Assembly: GCF_011386835.1 (NCBI RefSeq)
Contig: NC_088797.1
Span: 39,493,583 to 39,557,582 of the forward strand
Direction: 5' to 3'
DNA: 64,000 nt
From: Chrysemys picta bellii
Lineage: Eukaryota > Chordata > Testudines > Emydidae
The notes under the pieces were generated by a model. The model ran no database searches, was not told the DNA's origin, and was given only the letters and a program-made list of their open reading frames with translations. A program made the translations under genes and the position numbers. This document shows positions 3,166 to 64,000 of this stretch, one piece after another (position 1 is the stretch's first letter; each line of letters starts with the position of its first letter).

Positions 3166-3417
3166 GCTCGCAGTGCTGTGGCGTCCGCGCTGTCAATGAC
3201 TGGAAAAGTGCGCGAACTGATTTCCCGCCGGCGCTTTCAGGGAGGGAGGGCGGGAGTGATGAACGGATGACAACAGTTACCCAAAAGCACCCTCGACACA
3301 TTTTGTTACCCAGAAGGCATTGCCGGCTACACCCAGAATTCCAATGGGCAGAGGGGACTGCGGGAACTGTGGGATAGCTGACCACAGTGCACCGCTTCGA
3401 ATGTCGACGCTTTCACC

Positions 3418-9389: not shown

Positions 9390-10127
9390 TTAAGACTTGA
9401 GCTTGGGCCCGACTTCCCGAAGTGGGTTTTGAGCTGCCTGGCACGGGTCGTGGCTCACCCCCAGTCCTTTCTCTTACGGGAGGTAGGAGATCTTCCCCTC
9501 CCAGTCTTTTTCGGCTTCTTCCCCAGAGACTTGGGGGGGACCAATGCTGGCTCGTGGATGGTGCTCTGGTGCCAGAGTGAGTGCCGACTCCATTAGGAGC
9601 ACTTTCAGATGGATATCGCGCTCCTTTTTCGTCCGAGGTTAAAGGACTTGCAGATACGGCACTTGTCACTTATATGCCCTTCACCTAAGCACCTTAAGCA
9701 GCTGGTGTGAGGATCGCTGACGGGCATAGGCCGTTTGCAACAACCTTAGGGTTTAAAGCCTGGGGACCGGGGCATGCCCCATCTCCTGGCTGAGTCCCAT
9801 TTGGGACTAACAAAAAGTTGAGAACTACTACTAAGAGTAACTAAGAAACTATTAACTATATACAACTATATTACAGGTTTTCAAAGTTCACAAGAACAGA
9901 AAACGAAACAAAGCTAGCTGAAGCAACAGATGTTCCAGCACCGTCACTGGCGGCAAGAAGGAACTGAGGGTGGGGGGAGCCGGCAGCACCCCTTATACTG
10001 CACCATGTGGGTGCCAGAGCCGGTCCCCTATGGATACTGCTGAGGGAAAAACCTCTGGCACCGGTGCACGTGGCGAGCACAGACACCTAACATGGAATGG
10101 ACATGAGCAAGCACTCGAAGAAGAACC
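9390..10127 (-). mobile_element. DIRS-type retrotransposon fragment A (gag end and right terminus)
   Basis: The right end ...GAGCAAGCACTCGAAGAAGAACC matches the right termini of the DIRS copies at 20042, 49733 and 58763, and the preceding AAGAAGGAACTGAGGGTGGG block is shared with copy D near 58577. Read leftwards, the sequence includes a decayed gag start with a Cys-rich zinc-binding-like stretch, interrupted by stops, and a Ser/Pro/Arg-rich segment (9259-9669 minus). RT and recombinase are absent. The left boundary is approximate. Confidence 0.75.
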
Positions 10128-15431: not shown

Positions 15432-15832
15432 GAAAAAGAAGTTACTCAACCTTGTGCAGTAACTGGAGTTCTTTGAGATGTGTCTCCTTATGGGTGCTCT
15501 GCTTCAGGTGTGCATGAGCCCCAAGCACCTGTGATCAGAGATTTTCATTACCAGTGCCTTTTCAGACCACACATGCACTCCAGATATTCTCATACAATGA
15601 TACATAACATTGCACAGGTGAACTGTGCTCAGTTCCTTCTCTAGCACGAAGTCCTATGAGATGGAACTCTGAAGCAGTGGGTAGTGGAGCACTCTTAGGG
15701 GGACACATCTTGAAGAACTCCAGTTACTGCACAAGACAAGTAACCTCTCCTTCAAGTAGTTTCCCTATGGGTACTTTATTTCAGCAGACTCCTGAGTAAT
15801 ATCCCCAGGAAGAGGGAGCTTTAGAGTTGGCT

Positions 15833-17706: not shown

Positions 17707-18214
17707 AAAGGGGTTGGCTGTCTAATCAATCCCTTGATGAATTTTGCCATCACAGGGTGGGAAAGCACTGAGAAACACTTTACAGATTAATGTAAGGCTG
17801 TGACAGCTGCCAAGTGGAGCCTGAAGAAACTCATGGAAAGAATTTTTTAATTTCAGCAGGTAATTGAGAACAGTGAAGAGGGAAGACTGAACAGGCGAAA
17901 CCTGCTGCTGGACACACCACCAGCGAAATCTCTTCTATTTTGGAAAGTAAATGTTTTGCATAGGTACCTTTCTGCTGGTTAATGATACTTCTTGTATTTC
18001 TGCCAAACAAGAAGTTTATATCCCCGAGAACAATTAAAGAACCAAACTAAGAGTGGATGAATTCTCAGAATGGAAGGAAAAGTCCAACCAGAGTCCTGAG
18101 ACAGCAGATAGGGAACGGACAGAAGTTTCAATGCTAGACAGAGAGCTAGGGAGATCAGATAAGGGTAAAAGACTTGTCTTGTCCACTTCTGCACAACTAA
18201 AATGACTCCAGCTT

Positions 18215-24225: not shown

Positions 24226-25023
24226 TTAAATTCTGTAGTGGGGGACCCAAAACTGGACGCAATACTCCAGATGTGGCCTCACCAGTGCCAAATAGAGGGG
24301 AATAATCACTTCACTCGATCTGCTGGCAATGCTCCTAGTAATGCAGCCCAATATGCCGTTAGCCTTCTTGGCAACAAGGGCACACTGCTGACTCATATCC
24401 AGCTTCTCATCCATTGTAATCCCCAGGTCCTTTTCTGCTGAACTGCTCCTTAGCCAGTCAGTCCCCAGCTTGTAGCGGTGCATGGGATTCTTTCGTCTTA
24501 AGTGCAGGACTCTTCACTTGTCCTTGTTGAACCTCATCAGATTTCTTTTGGCTCAATCCTCCAATTTGTCTAGGTTACTCTGGACCATATCCCTACCCTC
24601 CAGTGTATCTACCTCTCCCCCCAGCTTAGTGTCATCCGGGAACTTGCTGTGGATGCAATCCATCCCATCATCCAGATCATTAATAAAGATGTTGAACAAA
24701 ACTGGCCCCAAGACCAACCCCTGGGGCACTCCGCTTGATACCGGCTGCCAACTAGACATCGAGCCGTTGATCACTACCCATTGAGCCCGACCATCTAGCC
24801 AGCTTTCTATCCATCTTATAGTCCATTAATCCAATCCATACTTTTTTAACTTGCTGGCAAGAATACTGTGGGAGATCATATCAAAAGCTTTGCTAAAGTC
24901 AAGATATATCATGTCCACTGCTTTCCCCATATCCACAGAGCCCGTTATCTCATCATAGAAGGCAATCAGGTTGGTCAGGCATGACTTGCCCTTGGTGAAT
25001 CCATGTTGACTGTTCCTGATCAC
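24226..25023 (-). pseudogene. CR1 ORF2 reverse transcriptase remnant
   Basis: Blocks in order: [28 protein letters not shown] (first catalytic Asp retained), [20 protein letters not shown], then [10 protein letters not shown], the YADD-equivalent motif with Ala replaced by Pro but both Asp retained, then [15 protein letters not shown] and [13 protein letters not shown]. The N-terminal fingers are missing through the deletion near 25020, and separate frames are needed. Non-functional. Confidence 0.8.
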
Positions 25024-25762
25024 CTTCCTCCTCCTCCTCCATCAGTTCCCTAAGGGAGTCAAAGTCTGCTTTTCTGAAGTCTAGGGTCTGTATTTTGCTA
25101 CTCTCCTTTCTTCCTTTTGTGAGGATCCTGAACTCAACCATCTCCTGATCACTGCTGCCTAGGCTGCGACCCACTGCTACTTCCCCTACCAATTCTTCCC
25201 TGTTTGTAAGCAGCAGGTCAAGAGGAGAACGGCCCCTGGTTGGTTCCTCCAGTAGTTGCACCAGGAAGTTGTCCCCAACACTCTCCAAAAACTTCCTGTA
25301 TTGTCTGTGCACTGTTGTATTGCTCTCCCAGCAGATGTCAGTGTGATCCAAGTCCCCCATTAGAACCAGGGCCTGTGTTCTGGAAACTTCAGTTAATTGT
25401 CCAAAGAAAGCCTCGTCTACCTCATCCTCCTGGTAAGGTGGTCTATAGCACATGCCCACCACGACACCACCCTTGTTGCTCTCACTTCTAAACTTAACCC
25501 AAAAACTCTCAACAGGCTTTTCTCTAGTTTCATACTGGCGCTCTGAGCAATCATACCACTTTCTTACATACAGTGCAACTCCTCCACCTTTCCTCCCCTG
25601 CCTGTCCTTCCTGAACTTTTTATACCCATCCATGACAGTGCTCAAGTCATGTGAGCTATCCCACCAAATCTCTGTTATTCCAATCACATCATAGTTCTTT
25701 GACTGTGCCAGGACTTCCAATTCTTCCTGCTTGTTTCCCAGGCTTCTTTCGTTCGTGTACAT
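24953..25762 (-). pseudogene. CR1 ORF2 apurinic-type endonuclease, mutated
   Basis: A 269-codon frame starting MYTNERSLGNKQ. It shows DVIGITEIWWD (catalytic Glu), GGGVALYV, GMCYRPP, GDLDHTDICWE (GDFN-type motif, here Asp in place of Asn) and a terminal SSDQEMVEF block in which the usual SDHE catalytic His is Gln. The endonuclease nicks target DNA to prime reverse transcription; the His-to-Gln change should abolish activity. After the domain the frame runs through a Glu-rich stretch into a deletion junction and stops. Confidence 0.8.
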
Positions 25763-25770
25763 GCACCTAG

Positions 25771-25947
25771 GATCATAGAATCATAGACTATCAGGGTTGG
25801 AAGGGACCTCAGGAGGTCATCTAGTCCAACCCCCTGCTCAAAGCAGGATCAATCCCCACCTAAATACCCAAATGGCCCCCTCAAGGATTGAACTCACAAC
25901 CCTGGGTTTAGCAGGCCAATGCTCAAACCACTGAGCTATCCCTCCCC
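25771..25947 (-). mobile_element. Cry-type tRNA-derived SINE with CR1-like tail
   Basis: On the minus strand it begins GGGGAGGGATAGCTCAGTGG, containing a pol III A box (TAGCTCAGTGG). A B box (GGTTGTGAGTTCAATCC) lies about 35 bp on. The tail (TTGGACTAGATGACCTCC, CCTTCCAACCCTGATAG, TCTATGATTC) is the CR1 3' end used by CR1 machinery. This tRNA-head, CR1-tail design is the SINE family described from cryptodiran turtles. It sits between ORF1 and ORF2 of the CR1 copy. Confidence 0.85.
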
Positions 25948-26069
25948 GATTGCTCTGCTTCCTCAGTATGAATCAGGAGCCCCCTCCCTCCCCCCTTGCA
26001 CTCTCTTCATTGTGTTTCCTCCCGGAATCCCACTTCCCCCAGGGCTTAGGTCACCGTCCCCTGGCGAAC

Positions 26070-27044
26070 CTAGTTTAAAGCCCTCCTCACTAGGTTAGCA
26101 AGTCTGCCTGCGAAGATACTCTTCCCTCTCTTCGTTAGGTGGATCCCATCTCTTTCTAGCAATCCTTCATCCCAGAACAACATCCCATGGTTGAGGACTC
26201 CAAATCCCACTCTCCAACACCACCTGCGTAACCACGCATTTACCTTTACAATTCGACGGTCCCTATCTGGGCCTCTTCCTTCAACAGGGAGGATGGACGA
26301 GAACACCACTTGCACCTCAAACTCTTTTATCCTTCTTCACAGAGCCACATAGTCTGCAGTGACCTGCTCAAGGTCATTCTTGGCAGTATCATTGGTGCCC
26401 ACATGGAGAAGTAGGAAGGGGTAGCGGCCCGAGGCCTTGATCAGTCTCGGCAGACACTCCGTCACATCCTGAATTCTAGCTCCAGGCAAGCAGCATACTT
26501 CTCAAGTCTCTCGGTCTGGTCGGCAGATGGATGACTCTGTCCCCCTTAGGAGGGAATCCCCGACCACCACCACCCATCTCCTCCTCTTAGAAGTGGTGGT
26601 CGTGGAACCCCCATCCCTAGGACAGTGCATCTCATGCCTTCTAGTCGATGGGGTCTCCTTCTGATCCCTTCCCTCAGATGGCTCTTCAAAATCATTTCCG
26701 CAGTAATACCTGTGCAGAGAGCCTGAAAACGGTTTCTTACTTCTATCTGAATAGGGGGTATATGGCTTTTCCTCATTCTTCTTCTGGAGGTCAACATGCT
26801 GCCAATTTTCTTCCCCGTTCTGCGCTGCCCTCTCTGATTCTTCGGCATGTTGTGCCTCCAGAACCAAATGCTGACTTCTGCCCAGAAAGTCTTCATTTTC
26901 TCTGATGCAACGCAAGGTTGATACTTGTGTCTCTAATCCTTTAACCTTCTCTTCCAATATGGAGACCAGTTTGCACTTTGTACAGACGAAGTCACTTCTA
27001 TCCTCTGGGAGAAAGACAAACAAGGCACATCCTATGCAGGTCAC
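26070..27044 (-). pseudogene. CR1 ORF1 with zinc-finger-like start and esterase domain, two nonsense codons
   Basis: A single frame of about 325 codons broken by TGA at 26504-26502 and at 26339-26337. The N-terminus has a Cys cluster (TCIGC, FVCTKCK), then a coiled-coil-like LVSILEEKVKGLETQVS segment. The C-terminal half is an SGNH-type esterase: GDSLLRG (nucleophile Ser block), HVGTNDTAKND (Asn block) and RDGIHLT (Asp-His block). This domain pair is typical of CR1 ORF1, whose product is thought to bind RNA and possibly membranes. Both stops look like single-base changes, so this is a young or lightly decayed pseudogene. Confidence 0.8.
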
Positions 27045-27285
27045 AACAGCAGATCAGATGATGAGACTTTGGGGAAAAAGTGGTTGTTTATCCATAGTTT
27101 GAAAGTTATTATATTATTTTTGGTCCACTCATAAAAATCAAACAATTTCCTATTAAAATTTCAAAGTTGTTTATACATTAATCCTCAGTTGCAACTGTGG
27201 CAGTGGACTAACTTTACCAAAGGAAGGAAGGAAAATCTTTTTTTAGTTATTAAAAGCTGATTTTTATGGTCTCCAGTACCATATA

Positions 27286-28757: not shown

Positions 28758-29384
28758 GGGTATGTCTACACTACGAAATTAGGTCGATTTGATAGAAGTC
28801 GATTTTTAGAAATCGATTTTATACAGTCGATTGCGTATGTCCACACTAAGCGCATTAAGTCGGCAGAGTGTGTCCTTACTACTGTGGCTAGCATTAACTT
28901 ACGGAGCGGCGCACTGTGAGTAGCTATCCCACAGTTCCTGCAGTCTCCGCTGCCCACTGGAATTCTGGGTTAAGCTTCCAATGCCTGATGGGGCAAAAAC
29001 ACTGTCGCGGGTGGTTTTGGGTACATGTCGTCAGTCTCCCCTCCCTCTGTGAAAGCAACGGCAGACAATCGTTTAGCGCCTTTTTTCCACGCAGATGCCA
29101 TACCATGGCAAGGGTGTAGCCCGCTCAGCTCAGCTCACCGACACCGCCGTTGTTGTGTCCTGGGTGGTGCTGGCAGCAGACAGTGCAGTAGGTCTGAAAA
29201 CCATTGTCATACACCGCTTCCGCTGCAACTCTGCTCTGCTGCTATTTCCTCGATAGCAAATTTCTCATTGTTGTCTGTCATGGGCTCCTGGGTATGTGTG
29301 TTCTTCCTCGGGAAATGTGCACGGTGCTTACCGTCGTCCTCCACCATTTCCGCTGCAACTCTGCTCTCCTGCAGACACCATACC

Positions 29385-30665
29385 ATGGCAAGCATGGAGC
29401 CCGCTCAGCTCACCGCTGCTGCTGTGAGCGTTGTAAACACCTCACACATTATCCTGCAGTATGTGCAGAACCTGCAAAAGCAGGCGAGGAGGCAACGACA
29501 GCACAATCACGATAGTGATGAGGACATGGACACAGACTTCTCTCAAAGCACAGGCCCTCGCAATTTGGACATCATGGTGGTAATGGGGCAGGTTCATGCC
29601 ATGGAACGCCAATTCTGGGCCCGGGAAACAAGCACAGACTGGTGGGACCACTTAGTGTTGCAGGTCTGGGATGATTCCCAGTGGCTGTGAAACTTTCGCA
29701 TGCATAAGGGCACTTTCATGGAACTTTGTGACTTGCTTTCGCCTGCCCTGAAGCGCAAGAATACCAAGATGAGAGCAGCCCTCACAGTTCACCAGGGAGT
29801 GGCAATAGCCCTGTGGAAGCTTGCAACGCCAGACAGCTACCCATCAGTCGGGAATCACTTTGGAGTGGGTAAATCTATCATGGGGGCTGCTGTGATCCAA
29901 GTAGCCAACACAATCACTGAGCTGTTGCTATCAAGGGTAGTGACTCTGGGAAATGTGCAGGTCAAAGTGGATGGCTTTGCTGCAATGGGGTTCCCTAACT
30001 GTGGTGGGGCGACAGACGGAACGCATATCCCTATCTTGGGACCGGACCACCTTGGCAGCCAGGAGGTAAACCACAAGGGGTACTTTTCAATGGTGCTGCA
30101 AGCACTGATGGATCACAAGGAACGTTTCACCGACATCAACATTGGGATGGCCAGGAAAGGTGCTCGCATCTTCAAGAACTCTGGTCTGTTTGAACAGCTG
30201 CAGGAAGGAACTTACTTCCCTGACCAGAAAATTACTGTTGGGGATGTTGAAATGCCTATAGTTATCCTTGGGGACCTACCCTACCCCTTAATGCCATGGC
30301 TCATGAAGTCATACACAGGCACCCTGGACAGTAGTCAGGAGCTGTTCAACTATAGGCTGAGCAAGTGCAGAATGGTGGTAGAATGTGCATTTGGATGTTT
30401 AAAAGCACGCTGGTGCAGTTTACTGACTGGGTTAGAGCTTAGCGAAACCAATATTCCCATTGTTATTACTGATTGCTGTGTGCTCCACAATATCTGTGAG
30501 AGTAAGGGGGAGACGTTTATGGCGGGGTGGGAGGTTGAGGCAAATCGCCTGCCCGCTGATTACGCGCAGCCCGACATCAGGGCGGTTGGAAAAGTACAGC
30601 AAGGTGCGCTGCGCATCAGAGAAGCTTTGAAAACCAGTTTCATGACTGGCCAGGCTACAGTGTGA
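29385..30665 (+). pseudogene. Harbinger transposase, inactivated
   Basis: The same protein as 1882-3165, about 426 codons, reading from ATG at 29385 (or 29394). A TGA at 29688-29690 replaces the Arg codon in the QWLRNF block. GATDGTHIPIL keeps the first Asp, but the PGKVHDARVF block of copy 1 is shortened by two codons to ARKGARIF (about 30150-30170), losing the His-Asp pair, and DPAYPL has become DLPYPL. VECAFGCLKARW keeps the Glu. Inactive on three counts. The 5' leader contains a partial tandem duplication (CATACCATGGCAAG at 29099 and 29379). Confidence 0.85.
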
Positions 30666-45472: not shown

Positions 45473-46863
45473 TGCTTTAAATAACAGATACTGGTTTTGA
45501 GTAAAGAACTTGTATTGGTCCTTTGTTGTTCCTCCCCTTTGTACGTCTCCCACCCCTCCTACAAAAAAGAAAAAGAAAAAAGTTTAACCATTTCAAGAAA
45601 AGAAGCTCACAGAAAGTTACATTTTGTCAGAGAAAATTATACAAACTGGCAAGTTTTGCAGGCACCTGGAAGTCAGCCAGCCAGAATAGGTACCGTGATG
45701 CTCTGTTTTCAAATATAGAATTATGTTTACAATTACGATAAATGTTAACTCACTGAGAAGTGACACGTCAATTTCAGTGATTGCACGTAAAACAAGAGTC
45801 ATTTAGGAGCCCTGCCAGTTAAATTCTCCAGAGTTCTATCTAATTACAGTTGCAACAGGAAGTACAATGGAAAACTAGAATGGCCATGAACTGTGCTATT
45901 GCCTGAGTGTGCTCTGCATATAAAAGTGGGAGAGGAACTGAAGACAAGGGACCCAATTCCCTATGGCACAGGTTCCAGGGAACAGAAATCTAAGTTTGCA
46001 GAGGCAGTGTTGTGAACACTTAATTTTATTGCAAGTCTTCTGATAGTTGAAGTTTTTCTTAAAGGCTCAGCTTCTAGAATCACATGATTTTGTGAGGATC
46101 TGAGTTTTCATTAGTGTCTTGCCCTCACAGTTGTGGAGAAAAGCTTGAAAAATTGACCCCTAAGGGCTCAAAACCCATAAGGCAAGAACCCAACTTTGAT
46201 TACTTTTTAAAAGTCTTTTTATTTTTAAGGCAATCTCATTATTTTGGGGGACCTGACTCATGATTTTTGAACACCTATGGTTGGCAATATTGCAGGAGTG
46301 CAAGGTGATTATAACCTAAAATCCCTGCTCCACCTAAGGGGCAGTAGCTGGCTGTCACTATATCAAAAATAATGTATCATCCTTTTTATGACATTGCACC
46401 CACTTATCTGTCACCCCCCCAAATCCATTCTCCCATCCAAAGCCACAATCAGCCTGAAAAGGCTCTTTTACAAGAATAATCAAACTCCACAGAAGCGTTT
46501 CCTCCTTCCCCACCAATATTGCACTTGCCTGAGGCCCAGGAAATGTTCAGTCTTAGACAACTAACAGATTTTTCTAGACATGAAAACATCACAGCTTTAA
46601 GGTTTGATATTTCCTGTTACTGCAGGGCTAGAAAAAAAAGTGTCATACTACTGGAAAAAGAGGATTCCGACCTTCCCAATGGGACCCAGAACTTACATCT
46701 AGAAAAGCTATCCTATGTCATTTTAGAGCTTTTCATGGCTTCCTCTGAGACTTGTGCAGTTAGTCTCTTGGTAACTAAGGTATTTGGATTTATAGGCAGA
46801 AGGATATGAAAAATAAATCCAAGAAGATTTTTAAAAAACAAAGACAAAAAAATGGATACAAAC
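45473..46863. other. Unique stretch
   Basis: No gene or repeat that I can support. Confidence 0.45.
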
Positions 46864-47291
46864 CATTCCATAATTGTTGTTCTTTGAGAAGTGTTGCTCA
46901 TGTCCATTCCACGTTAGGTGTGCCGCGCTACGTGCGCCGTCACTGGAAATTTCCCCCTCACTGGTATCTGTTGGACCATCCCCAGCACCCTCTGGTGCTG
47001 CACGCTTATGTGCCAGAATAAGGGGCACTGGCCGGCCCCACACCCTCTCAATCCCTTCTTGCTGGCTAACTCCGACCAAGGGGCAGGAGGGTGGGTCGTG
47101 GAATGGACATGAGCAACACATCTCAAAGAACAGTTATGGAAAGCTAATAACCTTTTTTCTTCTTCGAGTGCTAGTTTATGTCGATTCCACATTAGGTGAC
47201 TCACAAGTGGTACCGAAGGAGGTGGGCTCAGAATTCATGAACATGTGGATTGCAACACTGCTCTCCTGAACGTGGCATCATCTCAAGCCTG

Positions 47292-47936
47292 CTAGGTGAT
47301 GGTGTAATGGGAGGCAAAGGTATGCACTGATGACCAGGTTGCAGCCCTGCAGATGTCTTGGATCGGGATCTGGGCCAGAAACACTACTGAAGAGGCCTGA
47401 GTTCTCGTCAAATGAGCGATCAAGCTGGCAGAAGGAGAGATGCTCGCCTTCTCGTAACATGCATGAAAACAGGAGATTATCCAGGATGAGATTCTCTGGG
47501 CTGAAACTGGTAGGCCTTTCATGCTATCTGCTATTGCCACAAAGAACAGCTTGATCCTCTCAATATAGAAGGCTAGGGCATACCTAACATCCAATGGACT
47601 CTTCTGAATTCCTGTGTGGTTTCGGGAAGGAAACTGGCAGGAAAATAGCCTGGTTACTATGGAACTGCCAGACCACCTTTGGAAAGAACGCCAGGTAGGG
47701 CATTTGTCCTTAAAGAACACCATGTACGGTGGTTCTGATGTAAGGGCCCCGATTTCCGAGACCTGAGCTCTCTGACATTTATGTATAGGGAACGCTCTTC
47801 CTGGGACTACAGGCTCTCTGTTCCTAGGTGTTCGAGGTGTGCTCCCCAACCTAGATCTGATGTGTCCGAAGTTAAAGATACTGAAGGCTGGGGGGTGACA
47901 AAGGGAACACCCAGTTACTGACAGGGGTCCTTCCAC
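47292..47936 (-). pseudogene. Tyrosine recombinase C-terminal half, DIRS copy C
   Basis: A 214-codon frame: FSIFNFGHIRSRLGS, VSEIGALTSEPPYMVFFKDK (the active-site Arg segment RRVSEL has become AQVSEI), LDVRYALAFYIERIKLFF, AHLTRTQASS (His and Arg retained) and FASHYTIT (Tyr). The N-terminal core-binding domain is missing and the first catalytic Arg appears lost, so it is inactive. Confidence 0.8.
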
Positions 47937-48111
47937 AGGTTGAGGGAAGTGAAGACCAGAGCGGGAATCCTAAGCACCAAGGCCAACCAAGTCTACAAGG
48001 GTCTGAGGCGCAGTCTTGCATGCTGTACCGCATAAGTGCACATGGCCATGTGACCCAAAAGTTTGAGGCAAAACCAGGCTGTCATGACGGGGTGGACCTT
48101 GACCCTGGATA

Positions 48112-48797
48112 TCAGGTCCGACATTGAGCCTCTGAAAGGAAGGCTCTGGCCTGGTTTGAGTCTAGCATTGCCCCGATAAACTCTGTTCTCTGGACTGGAA
48201 CAAGAGTTGATTCTGCTCGTTTATTAGTAGGCCCAGTGCTTGGAAGGTGGTTTGGACTAGGCTCATGCTGTTCTTCACATGCGCTTCTGAACGGAACCTT
48301 GATCAGCCAGTCATCAAGGTATGGACAAACCTGAATGTCTCGCCTACTATCACCGCCATGCATATCATAAAAACCCGAGAGGCTGCAGACAGACTAAAGG
48401 GAAGGATGGTGAACTGATAATGGGTCTGGTTTATGATAAACCTGAGGAACCTTCTGTGGCATTGGAAGATGGAAATGTGGAAACAGGTGTCTTTGAAGTC
48501 GAGGTTGGCGTACCAGTCCCCTTGATCCAGGAAGGAAACGATGAAGGCCAGAGAGACATGTGAAAACTCAGTTTCTTGTGATAACCTTTGAGACAACACA
48601 GGTCTAGGATGGGTCGAAGACCCCCTCTGGCCTTCAGGATTAGGAAATATTGAAAGTAAAACCCCTTCCCTCAAGTTCTGAAGCACCTTTTCCACCACCC
48701 CTATCCGCAGGAGGGCTTGTAAGAAAGGTGCCTGAAGAGGGATGGGTATGGGGGGGGTGAGAGGGAGGGGTGGAAGAAAACTGAAGGGTGTAATCAT
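48112..48797 (-). pseudogene. Reverse transcriptase remnant, DIRS copy C
   Basis: Two frames. The upstream one has WYANLDFKDTCFHISIF (motif A Asp kept) and HYQFTILPFSLSAASRVF. The downstream one has VCPYLDDWLIK (catalytic YLDD intact) and RTEFIGAMLDS. They join by a frameshift near 48310-48360. RNase H is deleted. Confidence 0.8.
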
Positions 48798-49280
48798 CCA
48801 CCACTAGGGGATCGGGGGTGGAGGAGTGGCCCAACACAGGTTGCACTCCACTCCACCCCTTTGTTGTCCTTTCTTGGTATCGGGGAGTGTCCCTCTTGGA
48901 CTGTTGCTTCTTACCCTTTTTTCTCGGGACCAGAGATGGAGAATAGTGCTGAGAAACAAACGGTGCTGGAGGGGTGCTTTGCACCGAAGTTGAAGCGCTC
49001 AGTGCCAGATTCGATCAGCTTGGCTCGGACGCCAGGCTAAGTGTGGCTTACATTAGGATAGCCCTTCATCTAACTTCCCTGTCTTTCTTTGTAAGAGGCC
49101 TCAAGTCCCAACAGATATCACAACACTCCTCTACATGAGCCTCTCCCAGACACTTCAGACAACTAGAGTGTGGGTCACTCACCAGCACAGGCTTGCCGCA
49201 GGAGGCACAGGGTTTGAAGCCCAGGGAGGGCCTAGCCCCAGGGGTGAAGGGAGCCCCTCTATGTTAAAGGGTCTAACTAT

Positions 49281-49418
49281 CTACTTAGAGGTTTTTAAGG
49301 TCAGGCTTGACAAAGCCTTGGCTGGGATGATTTAGTTGAGGATTGGTCCTGCTTTGAGCAAGGGGTTGGACTAGATGACGTCCTGAGATCCCTTCCAACC
49401 CTGATATTCTATGATTGA
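49281..49418 (+). mobile_element. CR1 3'-end fragment inside DIRS copy C
   Basis: TTAGAGGTTTTTAAGGTCAG through GTTGGACTAGATGACGTCC to GATATTCTATGATTG: the last about 140 bp of CR1 (or of a CR1-tailed SINE). Confidence 0.75.
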
Positions 49419-49739
49419 TCTATACTAATACTATTTACAATATTTATACTACTACTAAAATGAAGACTAATAAACTAAGCTGAAGAGAAACCACTGAATA
49501 ACACTTTGCCAAAGCAAGAGGAGTTGTTCCAGTGACCATCACAGGCAATAAGAAGAAATTCAGAGGGTGTGGGACCGGTAGTGCCCCTTATACTGGCACA
49601 TAAGCGCTTGACATCAGAGGGCACTTGAGCCAGACCAATGAATATTGCTGAGGGAAAAATTTCCGGCAACAGTGCATGCAGCATGCGCACACCTAACGTA
49701 GAATAGACATGAGCAAGTACTTGAAGAAGAACAAACATT

Positions 49740-52449: not shown

Positions 52450-52798
52450 GGGCATCATTAACTCTGCCCTCCCTCAAAATAAGATTTTAGTCAAATCATG
52501 ATGCTTTTCTCTTAACACCTCCATGACCCACCCTTTTGTTTGTGTCCAGACTGCCAAAACTTCTATCCAGACCCTCATCTCCTCTTTTTACTTCTGCAAT
52601 CCTGACCTCTTTCAGGTCCATTCAAAATGCTGCTGATATAATCATCATCTTCCTAGATCATCAACCTGATCGTGTCACTGACTTCAAGACCCTCTACTTC
52701 CTCTCCCTTCTCTAGAAACTTCTGGTCCTTACTTCCAAAGTGCTTCTTTTATCTCACCATGTCACCACCCATTCCCTTTGTTCTGCCAACAAAAGATA
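52450..52798 (+). mobile_element. Old L2-like LINE fragment, left part
   Basis: Text such as GACTTCAAGACCCTCTACTTCC and the CTTCTGGTCCTTACTTCCAA block resembles the C-terminal coding region of L2-type LINEs. It continues after DIRS copy D at about 58770-58960 (GCATGGAATGCCTTTCCCAA, AAAATCCACACTCATGG). Assignment is from pattern memory. Confidence 0.45.
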
Positions 52799-52801
52799 GA
52801 T

Positions 52802-53104
52802 AGTTACCTGTTCCGTAACTGGTGTTCTTCGAGATGTGTTGCTCATGTCTATTCCACAGTATGTGTGCATGCTCGCCACGTGCACCAGTGCAGGAAGTTT
52901 TCCCCTTAGCAGTACCTGTACCGGGGGAGCACCGCTGCAACCCCTGGAGTGGCACCTCTATATCACGCTATAAGGGGAGCTGCGCACTCCCCCCACCCTT
53001 GGTTCCTTCTTGCTGGACAACTCCAACAGAGGGGAAGAAGGGTGGGGTGTGGAATAGACACGAGCAACACATCTCGAAGAATACCAGTTACGGAACAGGT
53101 AACT
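52802..53104. repeat. Inverted repeat at the 3' end of DIRS copy D
   Basis: Arms 52802-52858 and 53048-53104 (57 bp each, 2 mismatches) with a 189-bp spacer. Conserved core GTTCTTCGAGATGTGTTGCT. Confidence 0.92.
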
Positions 53105-53260
53105 GTCTTTTCTTCTCCGAGTAATTGCTCAAGTGTATTCCACAGTAGGTGATTCCAAGCTATATCTGTTGGAGGTGGGTAGGAGTTACAAGTTCCCAGG
53201 ACTCAGTACTGCCCTGCTGAACCCGGCATCATCCCTAGGTTGGGAGTCGATCGCATAATG

Positions 53261-54231
53261 CTAAGTAAATGTGTGAGCGAAGGCCCAAGTGGCCGCCCTA
53301 CAGATGTCCAGGATAGGGACATGAGCTACGTAGACAGCCGATGAGGCCTGAGCCCCTGTTGAGTGCGCCCTGATGATCGGTGGCGGGGGAACCCCGGCTA
53401 GATCATAGCATGTGCGTATGCACGAGGTGATCCAGCGGGAAAGACGCTGGGTGGAGATTGGTTGCCCCTTCACACGCTCGGCCGAGGCAACAAAAAGTTG
53501 CGAGGATTTCCACAACGGCTTGGTCCGATCCAGATAAAAAGCCAATGCCCTACGCACGTCGAGCGTGTGAAGGCGGCATTCCTCGTTGGAGGAATGGGGC
53601 TTAGGATAGAGCACGAGAAGAAAGATGTTCTGTTCCATATGGAAGGTGGAGACCACCTTCGGGAGAAAAGCCGGATGTGGGCGAAGCTGGATTTCATCCC
53701 TGTGGAAGACCGTATATGGAGGTTCCGAGGTCAGGGCCCTGAGTTCAGAGACATGATGGGCAGAAGTGATCGCTACAAGGAAGGCTACCTTCCATGAGAG
53801 GTGAGACCAGGAATACATGGCCAAGGGTTCAAAGGAAGGCCCCGTGAGGCGGGATAACACCAGGTGTAGGTCCCATTGCACCACAGGGTGTCTAGCATAT
53901 GGGAATAACAGTCAAGGCCTCTCAGGAAGCGGGAGGTTATATTATGGGAGAAGACCGAGAGTCCTTGCACCGGTGGGTGGAAGGCCGATATGGCCGCCAG
54001 GTGTACCCTGACAGAGGCGGGTGCCAGCCCTTGGGTCCTAAGGGACAGGAGGTACTCAAGGATGAGCTGGAGCAGTGCGGACGATAGGGAAGCTCCCCGC
54101 TCCCCCGCCCACCTGGAGAATCTCGACCACTTTGCCAGGTACGTCCGGCGTGTGGATGGCTTCCTACTTTCCAGGAGGACACACCTGACCTCTTCCGAAT
54201 ACCTCCCCTCCTCCTCGTCTAGCCACTGAGC
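53261..54231 (-). pseudogene. Tyrosine recombinase, DIRS copy D, frameshifted
   Basis: The N-terminal core-binding domain (SRKPSTRRTYLAKWSRFS, LILEYLLSLRTQGL, VHLAAISAFHP) is in one frame ending at 53785. The catalytic half is in another (53884-53261), with ITSAHHVSELRAL, where the catalytic Arg of ARRVSEL is His, then RAHSTGAQASS, where the HxxR Arg is Gly, and the frame stops just after AHTFT, before the Tyr. Three active-site defects plus a frameshift: dead. Confidence 0.85.
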
Positions 54232-55980
54232 AACCACGCTGTCAGGTGGAGCATGGCCAGATAGGGATGGAGAAGGCGGCCTCCGTCCTGGGAGAGGAGG
54301 TCTGGGCAAAGCGGCAGCCTCCTCGGAGGGGCCGCCAAGAGGTGCAGGAGGGTCCTGTACCAGTGTTGGCGGGCCCACGCTGGGGCTATAAGGATGACGC
54401 GCGCTTTGTCTGTTTTTACTTTTTGCAGGACTTTGCCGATAAGGGGAAACAGTGGGAAAGCGTAGAAAAGCTGGCCCAATCACTGCAGGAGGAAGGCATC
54501 CAAGATCGCGCCCCTCCCCACACACCCCCGGAACAGAACCGGGGGCAACGCCGGTTCTGGCAGGTTGCAAAGAGGTCGACCTGGGGAACTTCCCAATCTC
54601 GGAAGAGCCGGTGAGTGACCTCCGAGTGGAGCAACCACTCGTACTTGGGGGAGAAAACCCTGCTGAGGCGATCGGTTTGCGTATTGCGGACGCCTGATAA
54701 GTGGAACGCCCTCTGTGGGCTATACAGAACTCCCATAGGCTCAGGGCTTCCCGGCAGAGGGCCGAGGAATGAATCCCGCCTTGCCTGTTGATGTAGTACA
54801 TTGCGGCGGTGTTGTCTGTCAGGACTCTGATCACTTTGCCGCGAAGGTGCGTGTTGAAGGCAACACATGCCAACCGTATCGCCCTGAGCTCTTTGACATT
54901 TATGTGGAGGGACAAGTCTGAGGTCAACCACATCCCCTGGGTTTCCACGTTCCCTTTGTGAGCTCCTCAGCCCAAGTCCAACACATCGGACACCAGGTCT
55001 AAAGACGGGGTCACCTCGCGAAAAGGAACCCCTTGCAGCATATTGCTCGGTAAGACCACCATTGTAGGGAGGCAAGTATCGGGGATGGTACCATGAGAAC
55101 CTTGTCTAGCCCGTCCCGGGCCTGGGAGAACTGGGAGGCTAGCCAGAGCTGGAGGGGCCTCATTTGGAGCCTGGCGTGGCGGACCACATATGTGCATGCC
55201 AGCATGTGCTCCAGGATCCAAAGGCACGCTCTCACTGTTGTCACCGGGAAAGCAGTGACCGAGGCAATGAGATCTTTTAGGGCCTCAAATCTGCCCAGCG
55301 GGAGAGAGGCTGTGGCCCCTAAGGAGTCCAGCAGTGCCCCAATAAACTCTATGCGCTGCACTGGAACTAACATTGATTTGGTCTCGTTCACCACTAGGCC
55401 GAGATCGACGCATGTGGAAAGGAGCAGCTCCACATACGCCCTTACCTGGGACCAAGAGTTGCCCTTGAAAAGTCAATCATCCAGGTATGGAAAGATCTGT
55501 ACCCCTTCCCGTCTGAGGTAGGCCGCTACTACAGCCATGCACTTTGTGAAAACCCTGGGCATTGTGGATAGGCCAAACGGAAGGACTGTGAACTGGTAGT
55601 GGTCTAGCCCCACTAGGAAACGGAGGAAAGGCCTGTGCTCCTCGAAAATATGGATGTGAAAACACACTTCCTGCAGGTCCAGGGCAGCGTACCAATCTTC
55701 TGGCTCTAGGGACGGTATAACAGAGACCAGGGACACCATGCGGAACTTGGAGCGGACCAGAAAACAGTTGAGATCCCGCAGGTCCAGGATGGGCCTGAGA
55801 CCCCCTTTTGCCTTTAGAATCAGGAAATATCAGGAGTAGAAACCCTTGCCCTGGAATTCTACTGGAACTCTTTCCACCGCCCCCAGGTGCAGTAGTCGCT
55901 CCACCTCCTGCCCTAGGAGGTGGGCATGCTCCGGGTCCCACAGGCCCATCGGGGGGGGGGAGGGGAGGGGTTGGGCAGGG
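54232..55980 (-). pseudogene. RT-RNase H, DIRS copy D, with stops and frameshifts
   Basis: RT blocks: WYAALDLQEVCFHIHIF (motif A Asp kept), HYQFTVLPFGLSTMPRVF, IFPYLDD followed directly by TGA at 55475-55473 (Trp of YLDDW lost), then RIEFIGALLDS. A second TGA replaces Arg of the GFYSRYFLI block near 55832. RNase H: INVKELRAIRLA and VIRVLTDNTAAMYYINRQGG, after which the frame shifts (about 54700). The gene would need several repairs and is non-coding today. Confidence 0.85.
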
Positions 55981-56127
55981 GTAAGCTGAACTGCAACGTG
56001 TAGCCCCTATTGGTCCCAAGTTATACAGGACCACGCCCTGCAGAAGGCAGACAATTGGTTACAGAACACAAACTTTATTAATAGGGGAGTCTCCCTGGCA
56101 ACTGCCCTGGTGCCCCCCGGCAAATAG

Positions 56128-58509
56128 TCAAAACCACCTCTTTCCCTGCCTCTTGCCCTTAGAGGGCCCTGGCTGTGGGGCAGAGCGGGACTGTCGCCGA
56201 GACCGGCGCTTCTGGTCTCTCGGCCTCTTGTACGGGGGCTCGTATCTGCTTCTTGCAGGTTGAGCCAACAGTTGCGGTTTGGCCTTGTCCTTAGACGAAG
56301 GGACGTAGGAGCCCAAGGTTTGCAGAGTGGTACTGTAGTCTTTCATCCCGTGCAGCCTGACCTGTGAACAGAGCTTTCCCATCAAACGGCAGGTCCTGCA
56401 TGAGGGACTGGGCCTCCGCCGACAGCCCGGTCAGAAGGAGCCATGACGCCCAGATATCATAGATATGCATAGATATCGTGGATGCCATCGAACGGGCTGC
56501 CGTGTCAACCACGTCCAACGCTGCCTGAAGGGCCGCTTTGACCACCGCCGCCCCCTCATCCACCAGAGCCTTAAAGTCCTTTCTGTCCTGCTCCGGGAGG
56601 AGAGGTTCAAACTTCAGCAGGGACTCCCATAGGTTAAAGTCATACCGGCTCAGCAAGGCCTGATGATTGGTCACCCTGAGTTGGAAACTTGCAGAGGAAT
56701 AAAATTTCCTACCAAAGGAGTCCAGTCTTCTGGCGTCTTTGTTCTTGGGGGTGGGCATGGGCTGGCCCTGTCACTCTCAGTGGTTCACCAATTCCACCAC
56801 TAGCGAGTTAGGTGCCAGGTGAGAATAGAGGTACTCGTCGTCCTTAGCCAGCACAAAGTACTTCCTCTCAGCCTTCTTGGAAATCGGGGCCAAGGAGGCG
56901 GGAGTTTGCCACAAGGTGTTGGAGATGTTGGCCACCCCCTGGTGGAGGGGTAGTGCCACACGGTCCGGTGCCGAGGAAGACAGTACGTTAAAGAGGGAGT
57001 TGGGACACCACCCGCTTTAGCAGGTCTTGATGCGCCTTAAAATCCTCCTGTGGGATAGAGGGTGGGGGGTGCCATTATGGTGTCATTCAGCGCCAAAGAG
57101 AGCTGGCATGGAGCCGTGGGCCTCGGTCGGTACTGGGGGATTGACCCCCAGGTCGGAGACCGGGCACGGAGTCGCCAACTCATGACCTGCCGATTTGTCC
57201 CTCGGCCAAGATGGAGAGGCCAATGGAGCCTGGGATGCCCCGGCCACCGAACGGGTTCCTGTCTGGGTGGGCATCGGTGGCCACGGTGCCCATTGGCACC
57301 ACTGTCCCTGCCACGGGGCCCCTTGCCACTGCCCAAGTTGAGGGCCCGGTGGTGCTAGCTGGTCCGGCTGAGCCACACGGCCCGGAGATGGGCGGCTGGG
57401 TGCCGAGGCTGAGGTTCCCATCGACCGCGCAGTCTGATAGGAGCGGTAGGAACGGCGGTGCCTGCGACGCTGTCTTCCGCGGGACCGGGAACTTGATGTT
57501 GAGGACCGGTACCCGTCAGGAAGTGCTGCTCCAGTATTCGCCTTGGTGCCGGGAGCTCCGGTGCTCAAGAATTGCGAGGGGAGTCCCGTGTGCGACGTCT
57601 GGCAGCGCGGGAACTCAAGCGGGAGCGTCAACATTGATTGTGCTGAGACTGGCTACTGTAACTGAGTCACGAAGAGGAGCGTCTCCAGAGCCTGTCTCGG
57701 TGCCTGCGCCCACTACCGCGCGGCATGGAAAAACCTCAAGACTCCTGCCCAGGCTGCGAACCGGTTAGCCTGGTTGGCATCGAGGGCGGGCGCGAGCTGC
57801 GAGTTGACCGGCCACTGCGCGTCGAACGAGGCAGGGAGCGGTCCTTGGAGTGAGAGCTGTGCTGCGCTGGGGAGGTCTTGTGAGCACCCAGCGGCGGCTT
57901 GCTGCGGGACCGAGGGCCCATCACCAGCCGTGCCCTGGGTACCGGTAGGCTCAGAATGTCTTGTGTGGCCTGTAGAGCCTCTGGTGTCGATGGCATCCCG
58001 GCCGCAGGAGATGCGCGTGCGGATGGTGCCGGGCTGCTCCACTCAGCACGAGTCGGAGGTTTTGGGCCCGGGGGGGACCGAGGGCTGCCCGACACAGGAC
58101 CAGCCTCTCCCCTTTCCCTCTCTCGGCGCCGCTGCGAGGTGGAGCCCTTCCCCTGATTCTTGGAGGGGGAGCGGTGCCGGCTTGTGGAGGGGGCGTTGCT
58201 GCACACCGATGACGCGGTGCCAGGCGCTGAGTCCGCTCAGCGCACCAGAGTTGGGGCCAGTGCCAATTCCATAAGGAGAGCGTGAAGCCTGATGTCCCTC
58301 TCCTTCTTAGTCTGCAGTTTGAATGACCTGCAGATCTTGCAACATTCACTCACATGAGTTTTGCCCAAGCAGCAGAGACACTCAGTATGCGGATCACTCC
58401 TTGGCATGGAACGGCGACAAGAGTCGCACGACTTGAAACCTTGGGCACAGGGCATGCCCCGAGTCCACTCTAACAACTGAAAACTGTTAACTCTAGCGAA
58501 CGGTACCAC
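56128..58509 (-). pseudogene. Gag-like protein, DIRS copy D, broken
   Basis: The start region has a Cys-rich zinc-binding-like stretch (CDSCRRSMP, ECLCCLG, SECCKICRSF), then a stop at 58237 and a long Ser/Arg/Pro-rich low-complexity segment to about 57736. After frame changes comes the conserved gag core (56758-56291) with VDTAARSMAST, LLTGLSAEAQ and DLPFDGKALF, and a basic tail (YKRPRDQKRRSRRQSRS, 56385-56128). The DTAARSMA and LPFDGKxLF motifs are characteristic of DIRS gag proteins, which package the RNA. Frames differ between parts, so not expressed intact. Confidence 0.75.
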
Positions 58510-58769
58510 TAAGGTCGATTAGAAAGGCTGCAGCAGAGCTGGAGCACGAAGTTCTGACCATCTTCACTGGAGCCAAGAAGGAACTGAGGGTGGGGGGAGC
58601 ATGCACCTCCCCTTATAGCGCAATATAGAGGCGCCACTGCAGGGGTCTCAGCGGTTCTCCCCCAGTACGGGTACTGCTAAGGGAAAAACTTCTGGCACCA
58701 GTGCACATGGCGAGCACGGATACCTACTGTGGAATACACATGAGCAATCACTCGAAGAAGAATGGTGGC

Positions 58770-60567: not shown

Positions 60568-60876
60568 AAAAGACGGTTACTCACCGTTGTAACTGTTGTT
60601 CTTCGAGATGTGTTGCTCATATCCATTCCATTAGGTGTGTGCGCGCCGCGTGCACGATCGTCGGAAGATTTTTACCCTAGCAACACCGGCGGGTCGGCTG
60701 TGGAGCCCCCTAGAGTGGCGCCTTCATGGCGCTGAATATATACCCCAGCCGACCCGGCGCCCCCTCAGTTCCTTCTTGCCGGCTACTCCGACAGTGGGGA
60801 CGGGGGGCGGGTTTGGAATGGATATGAGCAACACATCTCGAAGAACAACAGTTACAACGGTGAGTAACCGTCTTTT
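60568..60876. repeat. Perfect inverted repeat at the 3' end of DIRS copy E
   Basis: Arms 60568-60630 and 60814-60876 (63 bp, no mismatch), 183-bp spacer. The core GTTCTTCGAGATGTGTTGCT is shared with copy D. Another partial copy of the TTCTTCGAG...CATATCCATTCCATTAGGTG block follows at about 60877-60913. Confidence 0.95.
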
Positions 60877-60929
60877 CTTCTTCGAGTGCTTGCTCATATC
60901 CATTCCATTAGGTGACTCCCAAGCCCAAC

Positions 60930-61997
60930 TTAGGTGGTGGGGTCGGAGTGAGACATTGCTGTGTGCAAAACCGCTGATCCGAAGGCAGCATCGTCCCTGG
61001 ACTGCTGCACTAGTGCATAGTGTTCTGTAAACGTGTGGACTGACGACCAAACCGCAGCTCTACAAATGTCCTGGATCGGAACTTGCGCCAGGAAAGCCGT
61101 CGAGGAAGCTTGGGCCCTCGTGGAGTGAGCGGTGAGGTGTGGTACTGGGACACCTGCCAGGTCGTAGCAAGTCCGGATGCAAGACGTAATCCAGGAGGAT
61201 AGGCGTTGTGATGAGACCGGTGAGCCTTTCATTCGGTCGGCCACTGCAACGAAGAGTTGCGTCGTCTTTCTAAAGTGCCTTGTGCGGTCAATATAGAAGG
61301 CCAGGGCCCTGCGTACGTCCAGAGAATGCAAGCGTTGATCCTGGCGAGTAGCATGTGGTTTAGGATGAAAGACCGGGAGAAATATATCCTGGTTGATATG
61401 AAATGGAGAAACCACCTTAGGGAGAAAGGCAGGATGTGGGCGGAGCTGCACTTTATCCTTATGGAAAACTGTGTAAGGGGGCTCGGATGTAAGCGCCCTG
61501 AGTTCAGAAACGCGCCTTGCTGAGGTGATGGCTACGAGGAAGGCTGTCTTCCAGGATAGGTACAAAAGTGAACAGGTGGCCAGTGGCTCGAATGGAGGAC
61601 CTGTGAGCTTGGAGAGAACCAGGTTGAGGTCCCACGTCGGAACGGGCTGATGTTGTTGTGGGTACATCCGGTCTAAGCCCTTGAGGAATCTAACGACCAT
61701 CGGGTTAGAGAATACCGAGGACGCGAGTTCCCCTGGGTGAAAGGCCGATATAGCGGCCAGGTGAACTCTAATTGAAGATATCGCCAACCCTTGCTGTTTT
61801 AGGGAGAGGAGATATTCCAAAATGAGAGGGATAGGTGCCTGTAACGGGGACGTGGCTCGTTGTTCGCACCAACAGGAGAACCGCTTCCACTTGGCCAAGT
61901 ATGTGGTCCGTGTTGAGGGCTTCCTACTGCTCAGCAGAATCTGTTGGACAGAGTGCGAGCACTGCTGCTCTGCCTGGGTGAACCATGGAGCAGCCAC
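60930..61997 (-). CDS. DIRS tyrosine recombinase, intact
   Basis: About 355 codons of recombinase at the end of a frame that stays open back to 63794 (954 codons in all; residue numbers below use that frame). Core-binding domain: SSRKPSTRTTYLAKW, LILEYLLSLKQQGL, VHLAAISAFHP. Catalytic domain: Arg761 in TSARRVSELRAL, His890 and Arg893 in TAHSTRAQASS, Trp916 in AVWSSVHTF, nucleophile Tyr926 in TEHYALV (codon 61019-61017). This is the full R-H-R-H/W-Y set of tyrosine recombinases. It would integrate a circular DNA intermediate without making target duplications. It overlaps the end of the RT frame by about 65 bp in a different frame. Its true start or frameshift route is unknown. Confidence 0.88.
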   Translation of the reverse strand: MAAPWFTQAEQQCSHSVQQILLSSRKPSTRTTYLAKWKRFSCWCEQRATSPLQAPIPLILEYLLSLKQQGLAISSIRVHLAAISAFHPGELASSVFSNPMVVRFLKGLDRMYPQQHQPVPTWDLNLVLSKLTGPPFEPLATCSLLYLSWKTAFLVAITSARRVSELRALTSEPPYTVFHKDKVQLRPHPAFLPKVVSPFHINQDIFLPVFHPKPHATRQDQRLHSLDVRRALAFYIDRTRHFRKTTQLFVAVADRMKGSPVSSQRLSSWITSCIRTCYDLAGVPVPHLTAHSTRAQASSTAFLAQVPIQDICRAAVWSSVHTFTEHYALVQQSRDDAAFGSAVLHTAMSHSDPTT

Positions 61998-64000
61998 GCC
62001 GTGAGGTGGAGTGATTGCAGGTCGGGGTGACGCAGGCGGCCGTGGTCCTGAGAGATGAGATCCGGGCATAATGGAAGCGGGATCGGTGTCTGAACCGAGA
62101 GCTCCAACAGCGTGGTGTACCAATGTTGTCTCGGCCACGCTGGGGCGATCAGAATCACCTGTGCCTGGTCTCTGCGCAATTTGAGCAGTACCTTGTGGAC
62201 CAGAGGAAACGGAGGGAAGGCATAAAACAGGTGGTCTTTCCAGGGAAGGAGAAACGCATCCGAGAGGGAGCCCGGAGCTCGACCTTGCAGGGAGCAGAAC
62301 ACGTGGCACTTCCTGTTGTCTCGAGATGCAAACAGGTCTATCTGGGGAAACCCCCACTTCTGGAAGACGGAATGTATGATGTCCGGACGGATAGACCACT
62401 CGTGTGTTTGAAAGGACCTGCTGAGTCGGTCCGCCAGAGTGTTCTGGACTCCAGGGAGGAACGATGCCGTGAGATGGATTGAGTGGGCGATGCAGAAGTC
62501 CCACAGGTGAATGGCCTCTTGGCATAGAATTGACGAACGTGCTCCTCCTTGCTTGTTGATGTAAAACATGGCAGTGGTGTTGTCGATGAGAACTAACACA
62601 CAGCGGCCACGTAGGAGATTGAGAAATGCCTGGCACGCCAGGCGCACTGCCATCAGTTCCCGAACACTGATGTGCAGGGCTATCTGGGGTGCAGTCCCCA
62701 GGCCCTGGGTATGGTGTTCGTTGAGATGGGCGCCCCAACTCAGGGATGAAGCGTCTGTGACCAGGTGCAGAGAGGGTTGTGGGGCGTGAAACGGCATCCC
62801 CTCGCAAACCACCTTGTGGTCTAGCCACCATGTGAGGGAGGTCAGGACCGAGTTCGGGACCGTGACCACCATGTTCAGGCTGTCCCGATGTGGGCGGTAT
62901 ATTGATGACACCCAAGTCTGGAGTGGGCGAAGCCCAAGTCTGGCATGCCTGGTTACGTACGTGCAGGAAGCCATGTGACCCAGCAGGGTAAGGCACGACC
63001 TCACCATGGTAGTTGGGAAGGCCTTGAGTCCTTGAATGAGGCTCGTGATGGTGCAAAAGCGATTGTCTGGCAGGATGGCTTGTGCACGTCTGGAGTCTAG
63101 AACCGCGCCGATGAATTCTATTCTCTGGGTAGGTTCTAGAGTGGATTTGTCCTTGTTGAGTAGGATACCCAACTTGTTGAATGTGTGCACTATTATGTGG
63201 ACGTGATCTCGAACTTGTTCTTTGGTGCGACCGCGTACCAGCCAGTCGTCTAGGTACGGGAACACCTGTATCCCTTGCCGACGAAGGTACGCTGCCACGA
63301 CAGCCATACATTTCGTGAACACCCTTGGGGCCGAGGATAGGCCGAAGGGAAGGACTGCAAATTGGTAGTGCACCTTGCTTACCACGAACCGCAGGAAGCG
63401 TCCGTGAGGCGGGTAAATTGCTATGTGAAAGTATGCATCTTTCATGTCGAGGGCGGCGAACCAGTCTCCAGGATCGAGGGAAGGGATAATGGTCCCCAAA
63501 GAGACCATGCGGAACTTCAACATTACTACGAATTTGTTGAGTCCGCGCAAGTCCAAGATGGGTCGCAGACCTCCTTTGGACTTGGGAATGAGGAAGTAAC
63601 GGGAATAGAATCCCCTGCCCCTTAACTCCACTGGAACCTCCTCTATGGCCCCCATAGCAAGGAGCGTGGAAACTTCCTGTATAAGAAGTTGCTCGTGAGA
63701 AGGGTCCCTGAAGAGGGACGGGGAAGGGGGGGAGGAGGGGGGAATTGAGGAAAACTGGATAGCATATCCCCTGTCCACCGTGCGAAGGACCCAACGGTCC
63801 GAGGTTATAAGGGACCAGGCATGGTGGAAATGGGAAAGGCGATCCCGAAAGGATGGGGCTGGATCCTGTGGGATGACTGGGGCGCCGTCCTCGACCGCAC
63901 CTTCAAAAGTTCTGCCTGGGGCCTGAAGGTGGTCTAGGTGGCCCCTGGTTCTGACCAGGTTGAGGGCCGGTCCACCTTCTTCTACCACCTCGTCCTCGCC
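61931..64000 (-). CDS. DIRS reverse transcriptase-RNase H, intact, 5' partial
   Basis: Open from the window edge to a stop at 61931 (685 codons counted from a GTG at 63988, with the frame continuing upstream). RT: GFYSRYFLIPKSKGGLRPIL, motif A WFAALDMKDAYFHI (Asp181), LPFGLSSAPRVF, active site PYLDDWL (Asp247, Asp248), then RIEFIGAVLDS. RNase H: TDAS (Asp412), SVRELMA (Glu444), LIDNTTAMFYIN (Asp469), NTLADRLSR (Asp520), the full D-E-D-D set. The C-terminal region (WKDHLFYAFPPFPLV, ILIAPAWPRQHWY) is the conserved extension seen in DIRS pol proteins, often compared to a methyltransferase-like domain. All residues expected for activity are present. Confidence 0.9.
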   Translation of the reverse strand, partial: GEDEVVEEGGPALNLVRTRGHLDHLQAPGRTFEGAVEDGAPVIPQDPAPSFRDRLSHFHHAWSLITSDRWVLRTVDRGYAIQFSSIPPSSPPSPSLFRDPSHEQLLIQEVSTLLAMGAIEEVPVELRGRGFYSRYFLIPKSKGGLRPILDLRGLNKFVVMLKFRMVSLGTIIPSLDPGDWFAALDMKDAYFHIAIYPPHGRFLRFVVSKVHYQFAVLPFGLSSAPRVFTKCMAVVAAYLRRQGIQVFPYLDDWLVRGRTKEQVRDHVHIIVHTFNKLGILLNKDKSTLEPTQRIEFIGAVLDSRRAQAILPDNRFCTITSLIQGLKAFPTTMVRSCLTLLGHMASCTYVTRHARLGLRPLQTWVSSIYRPHRDSLNMVVTVPNSVLTSLTWWLDHKVVCEGMPFHAPQPSLHLVTDASSLSWGAHLNEHHTQGLGTAPQIALHISVRELMAVRLACQAFLNLLRGRCVLVLIDNTTAMFYINKQGGARSSILCQEAIHLWDFCIAHSIHLTASFLPGVQNTLADRLSRSFQTHEWSIRPDIIHSVFQKWGFPQIDLFASRDNRKCHVFCSLQGRAPGSLSDAFLLPWKDHLFYAFPPFPLVHKVLLKLRRDQAQVILIAPAWPRQHWYTTLLELSVQTPIPLPLCPDLISQDHGRLRHPDLQSLHLTAWLLHGSPRQSSSARTLSNRFC

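What the first reader, a model, noticed from the sequence alone, without database searches (positions are those of the whole stretch)
60568..64000. DIRS copy E keeps every catalytic residue and a perfect terminal inverted repeat
Four other DIRS pieces in the window are decayed, but this one has unbroken RT, RNase H (D-E-D-D) and recombinase (R-H-R-W-Y) sequences and a 63-bp repeat with no mismatch. That suggests recent insertion or a still-active lineage.
Basis: partly seen in the sequence, partly recalled or inferred. Interest (0 to 1): 0.75.

Follow-up and report, generated by a model that had tools for sequence, protein, structure and literature searches.

The report
Young turtle DIRS retrotransposon, 3' half
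The end of the window holds the 3' half of a fairly young, well-preserved jumping gene of the known DIRS family in a turtle-like genome; it looks recently inserted, but nothing here shows that it can still move.

Summary
Copy E (60568 to the window edge, minus strand) is the 3' part of a DIRS1-like tyrosine-recombinase retrotransposon; the closest protein found is from painted turtle (650/688 residues). RT-RNase H-MT and recombinase frames are unbroken and the named catalytic residues are present. The 63-bp perfect repeat is real, but is not the element's two ends. It is the right end (60568-60630) paired with the right internal complementary region (60814-60876), a defining DIRS part; the left end lies beyond 64000. 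In full-length copy D the same layout can be checked at both ends (45 of 52 columns for the left end). The repeat is weak evidence of age: decayed D keeps 58/61 (p=0.12). Intact frames plus perfect arms suggest insertion within about 0.5-1.2% divergence under an assumed decay model, so 'relatively recent' is supported. 'Still active' is untested: E has replaced three near-invariant RNase H residues, and the genome search did not complete. The recombinase frame overlaps pol for 656 codons, beyond a shuffle control; long overlaps are a known DIRS trait. New member of a known kind.

The parts
60568..60813 (-). right inverted terminal repeat with its right extension, and spacer up to the ICR; the outer 63 nt (60568-60630) pair with the right ICR
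   Evidence: naming after PMC3266345 (passages)
60814..60876 (-). right internal complementary region (rICR), 63/63 complementary to 60568-60630
60873..60914 (-). left internal complementary region (lICR), sharing the TTTT junction with the rICR; predicts the unseen left end of E. The equivalent in copy D matches D's left end (45 identical, 5 mismatched, 2 gapped of 52 columns). Boundaries by eye.
60930..63902 (-). tyrosine recombinase (YR) frame, 990 codons stop to stop, -1 relative to pol; first ATG in frame at 63311 (codon 198); catalytic core about 60990-62000
61931..64000 (-). pol frame: RT (YLDD aspartates at 63245-63250), RNase H (D-E-D-D between 62755 and 62429), methyltransferase-like region (about 62338-62210, label from recall and PMC3266345); runs off the window towards gag
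62666..62740 (-). three RNase H positions (residues 420, 434, 444) where E departs from near-invariant residues
52788..58762 (-). copy D: full-length but decayed DIRS of another family (62.3% nt to E over 2908 aligned columns), both ends in the window; used as the internal control

Best explanation
E is the 3' part of a DIRS1-like retrotransposon. Shown: pol (RT, RNase H, MT-like region), an overlapping recombinase frame, a right terminal repeat, and a right internal complementary region, followed by a stretch placed like a left one, arranged as in described DIRS1-like elements. Inferred from the published model: an RNA copy is reverse transcribed, the complementary regions bring the two ends together over the T-rich junction, a circle forms, and the recombinase inserts it at a matching short site without target duplication. 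E itself most likely inserted relatively recently (about 0.5-1.2% neutral divergence or less under the assumed decay model) from an intact source copy, and has since begun to drift, so E is probably not itself a source of new copies (inference).
For: Frames open. RVT_1 at E=1.9e-20. The named top RT hits come from turtles, newts and lizards, with fish further down; best 94% to P0001 of Chrysemys picta bellii. YR: best hit 71% over 94% of the query; 5 of the 120 listed relatives bear PF00589, PF13495 or PF02899. Catalytic columns. rICR 63/63. D's left end matches D's own lICR, a test of the layout. Frame and arm survival simulations. CpG ratio highest in E of four pieces.
Against: Gag and the left end were not seen. 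E deviates at 3 of 88 RT-RNase H columns conserved in at least 95% of relatives, above the 75th percentile of the relatives scored there. One residue beside the catalytic Trp of the recombinase (Val) is shared with only 4 of 104 relatives. The Pfam scan found no family in the recombinase frame. The age estimate assumes neutral decay, an indel ratio and a fivefold CpG rate, and E was picked as the best of several pieces.
Confidence: 0.85

Rival explanations
1. E is itself a currently mobile, fully competent copy.
For: No stop or frameshift in the 3.07 kb of coding seen, recombinase without deviation at 45 columns conserved at 93% or more, perfect right-end pairing.
Against: Three RNase H changes at near-invariant positions. 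Gag and left end unseen. No near-identical relative was listed, but these lists are clustered at 90% and two of them are capped at 120, so they cannot exclude one.
Confidence: 0.12
2. E is an older insertion that has kept its frames by luck or slow host mutation.
For: The 63-bp arms alone allow up to 2.4% divergence per arm at 95%. Decayed D keeps 58/61 and C 43 of 48 columns. E has the rarer residue at 13 of 27 scorable differences from P0001, P0001 at 14, so E's side has gathered real changes.
Against: With the whole recombinase frame required, both frames survive in only 9% (no indels) or 0.7% (indel ratio 0.1) of 300 runs at 1% divergence. High CpG ratio.
Confidence: 0.2
3. The pol or recombinase region has been kept by the host as a useful gene.
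For: Unbroken frames.
Against: The terminal repeat and ICR are preserved too, which a domesticated gene would not need. Near-invariant RNase H positions are changed in E. Host gene structure was not searched for.
Confidence: 0.02

Closest known systems
LOC122174245 product (P0001), Chrysemys picta bellii, unnamed DIRS gag-pol
   Same: 650 of 688 residues identical with no gaps over E's visible pol; its N-terminal 345 residues suggest what lies beyond 64000
   Different: 38 residue differences; it carries two changes at near-invariant RNase H columns, E carries three others
AcDIRS2 of Anolis carolinensis and other vertebrate DIRS1-like elements in PMC3266345 (passages seen)
   Same: the table gives for AcDIRS2 start TTT, circle junction AAA, long ORF overlap, ICR 39-60; E has a TTTT/AAAA junction and ICR parts of about 38 and 63 nt
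   Different: host lineage and sequence; no direct sequence comparison was made
Long YR proteins P0241 (Chelonoidis abingdonii, 945 aa) and P0242 (Pelodiscus sinensis, 956 aa)
   Same: collinear with E's overlapping frame: 495 of 929 identical without a gap, and 344 of 949 columns with 22 gaps
   Different: other families; these are predicted proteins
DIRS copy D in this window
   Same: layout, both ICRs, overlapping frame
   Different: 62.3% nt identity, decayed, gag and pol broken

Membership tests
DIRS1-like | pol with RT, RNase H and MT region | tested here: met
   RT by Pfam; RNase H and MT by conserved columns among relatives; the RNase H and MT labels rest on recalled motifs and PMC3266345, no family model hit them in E
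DIRS1-like | tyrosine recombinase in the same orientation, catalytic part in the non-overlapping 3' end | tested here: met
DIRS1-like | right ICR complementary to the right end | tested here: met
   63/63
DIRS1-like | left ICR complementary to the left end | tested here: inconclusive
   E's left end is outside the window; in copy D 45 of 52 columns match
DIRS1-like | two inverted terminal repeats | tested here: inconclusive
   only the right one is visible in E; D shows both, 159 identical, 27 mismatched, 2 gapped
DIRS1-like | gag-like first ORF | not testable with these tools
   beyond 64000; an N-terminal part is present in P0001 and, broken, in D
DIRS1-like | no target site duplication | not testable with these tools
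   left flank not in the window
PAT/Ngaro | split direct repeats in place of inverted repeats with ICR | tested here: not met
   E's 3' end is an inverted repeat with ICR; D's two ends are inverted copies. A 43-45 nt direct match at 88.9% in E is the right end against the lICR, as the DIRS layout predicts. E's own 5' end was not seen.

The most novel reading that the evidence does not exclude
In this DIRS group the whole of pol is kept stop-free in a second reading frame while the sequence of that frame drifts, so the recombinase may be made with a long, loosely constrained tail translated through pol by an initiation or frameshift route not yet described. E has no ATG in the first 197 codons of the frame. 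Its open run of 656 codons was reached by none of 2000 synonymous shuffles of pol (longest 343). D aligns through it with 3 stops in 731 columns (no shuffle was run for D), and two predicted turtle proteins run through it. The older copies C and A do not show it kept.
Probability: 0.25. Interest if true: 0.4.

Novelty: new member of a known kind. Interest (0 to 1): 0.22.

Why it matters
It corrects how such a copy should be dated: the easily spotted perfect repeat is right end versus internal complementary region, which decayed copy D still keeps at 95%, so frame survival is the better clock. It also gives a clear example of the end-to-ICR layout in a turtle-like genome and of a 656-codon overlap under stop avoidance, whose translation route is untested.

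Tried and rejected
Own-genome search for near-identical copies: the same request was made, and none was answered.

Viral contigs: 11 stretches matched a pattern, none encoded a relative; that tool may leave out records near the window's genome.

Reading the 63-bp repeat as left versus right terminus: rejected, since both arms lie within 309 bp at the 3' end.

Dating by the repeat alone: rejected as too weak (Fisher p=0.116 against D).

Canonical -1 slippery heptamers in the pol frame: two found, at 63731 and 63500. My rough estimate of the chance number, from no call, is about 2.7, so they carry no weight.

Codon-position counts, E against D: pol third positions differ most in the overlap (0.558, against 0.309 and 0.256). 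These are first positions of the recombinase frame, so that frame's sequence is weakly constrained although it stays open.

Host species: not determined. 'Turtle' rests on protein best hits only.

Literature: seven searches. In their listings I saw no title or abstract start about this family in turtles or its activity. Passages were read in five papers (PMC3266345, PMC9210276, PMC9004415, PMC4495291, PMC5438563), none whole. Only the held open-licence library was searched.

Full report
What is there. The window ends inside a transposable element read on the minus strand, with its 3' end at 60568. The pol frame runs from the window edge to 61931 and the recombinase frame from 63902 to 60930, both without stops. 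Pfam recognises RVT_1 in pol (E=1.9e-20); the recombinase frame matched no Pfam model at E<=0.001, although 5 of its 120 listed relatives carry PF00589, PF13495 or PF02899. The best pol relative is P0001, an uncharacterised Chrysemys picta bellii protein, 650 of 688 residues identical. The best YR relative is a Gopherus protein at 71% over 94% of the query, and the search with the long frame gave a Chelonoidis protein at 55% over 96%. The host is thus turtle-like; no tool named it. The protein lists are clustered at 90% identity and show the best 120 of 2403, 120 of 224 and 105 of 105 hits, so near-identical copies could be hidden.

The repeat. The 63-nt arms (60568-60630, 60814-60876) match 63 of 63 and do not extend. 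Both lie at the 3' end. Directly inside follows a stretch (60877-60914) that resembles the right end's inner part but differs from it. In DIRS1-like elements the left and right internal complementary regions overlap at a circle junction and are complementary to the left and right ends (PMC3266345, passages seen). E fits that layout, with TTTT (60873-60876) as the shared junction. The prediction is that E's unseen left end carries the complement of the left ICR. E cannot show it, but copy D, complete from 52788 to 58762, does: its left end matches its own left ICR at 45 identical columns, 5 mismatches and 2 gapped columns.

Integrity. Among 88 columns conserved in at least 95% of 120 RT relatives, E deviates at three, all in RNase H (residues 420, 434, 444; the usual residue in 116/119, 119/119 and 119/119 relatives). 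Across the relatives that could be scored (more than 50 such columns; their number was not printed) the median deviation is 0 and the 75th and 90th percentiles are 2.3% and 4.5%; E is at 3.4%. P0001 carries two deviations of its own. At 45 YR columns conserved at 93% or more, E has none. A Val next to the catalytic Trp is shared with only 4 of 104 relatives.

Age. Arms alone: zero mismatches in 63 bounds divergence at 2.4% per arm (95%). D's arms, in a copy with broken gag and pol, still match at 58 of 61; Fisher p=0.116. C keeps 43 of 48 columns. Frames: in a neutral simulation (CpG rate fivefold, 300 runs per value) both frames survive at 1% divergence in 26% (no indels) or 1.3% (indel ratio 0.1) of runs if YR is counted from 62069, and in 9% or 0.7% if the whole YR frame is required. 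Multiplied by the arms, the joint chance falls below 5% at about 0.5-0.7% with indels or 0.8-1.2% without, interpolated between the values run. E is the best of several pieces, so the bound is optimistic. CpG observed/expected: E 0.726, D 0.599, C 0.366, A 0.212, window 1-46840 0.307. E is the youngest-looking DIRS piece here, but the pieces are different families: 62.3% nt identity to D over 2908 aligned columns, 65-70% in the blocks of C and D longer than 300 nt.

Overlap. The YR frame is open for 656 codons inside pol. Shuffling synonymous codons of pol 2000 times gives on average 18 stops in that frame (minimum 7) and never more than 343 open codons; the third frame behaves as expected (84 open codons observed, mean 90; 1043 of 2000 shuffles reach it). 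D aligns through the frame with 3 stops in 731 columns; C gives pieces in two frames with 2 stops, and A only a marginal match (E=0.28). Predicted proteins of Chelonoidis (945 aa) and Pelodiscus (956 aa) run through it. Long overlaps are reported for half of 28 DIRS1-like elements (PMC3266345), so this is a known trait. In E the first ATG of the frame is codon 198; how the recombinase is started is not known from these data.

Known background. Turtle and tortoise DIRS elements are on record: Gopherus agassizii in a table of PMC3266345, and 792 painted-turtle regions with LAP2alpha (DIRS gag) homology, with 642 RT_DIRS1 and 594 RNase_HI_RT_DIRS1 cases (PMC4495291, passages). DIRS repeats rank third after CR1 and hAT in the painted turtle methylome, in the same order as in its genome and, by that paper's citation, transcriptome (PMC5438563, passages). 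A well-preserved DIRS copy in a turtle is therefore expected.

Conclusion. Sound observation, one misread part, ordinary biology. Relatively recent insertion is likely; present activity is not shown.

Noticed in passing
52788-58762 (-): Full-length decayed DIRS copy D with both ends, ICRs and broken gag/pol; its left and right terminal repeats differ at 27 of 186 aligned positions plus 2 gaps.
   Followed up: yes
46841-49734 (-): Copy C has DIRS-end matches at both sides only about 2.9 kb apart, so it is probably internally deleted.
   Followed up: partly
10064-10126, 15432-15483: Isolated stretches resembling DIRS terminal repeats; the second may be the right end of the old copy A (YR remnants at 15848-18009).
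   Followed up: no
1882-3192 (-): Unbroken 436-codon frame that looks like a PIF/Harbinger transposase (recalled, no family search run); a similar but split frame lies at 28989-30665 (+).
   Followed up: no
24953-27053 (-): Frames that look like a CR1-type LINE (recalled, not searched).
   Followed up: no
60930-63902 (-): Recombinase frame kept open through the visible conserved pol, with no ATG in its first 197 codons.
   Followed up: partly
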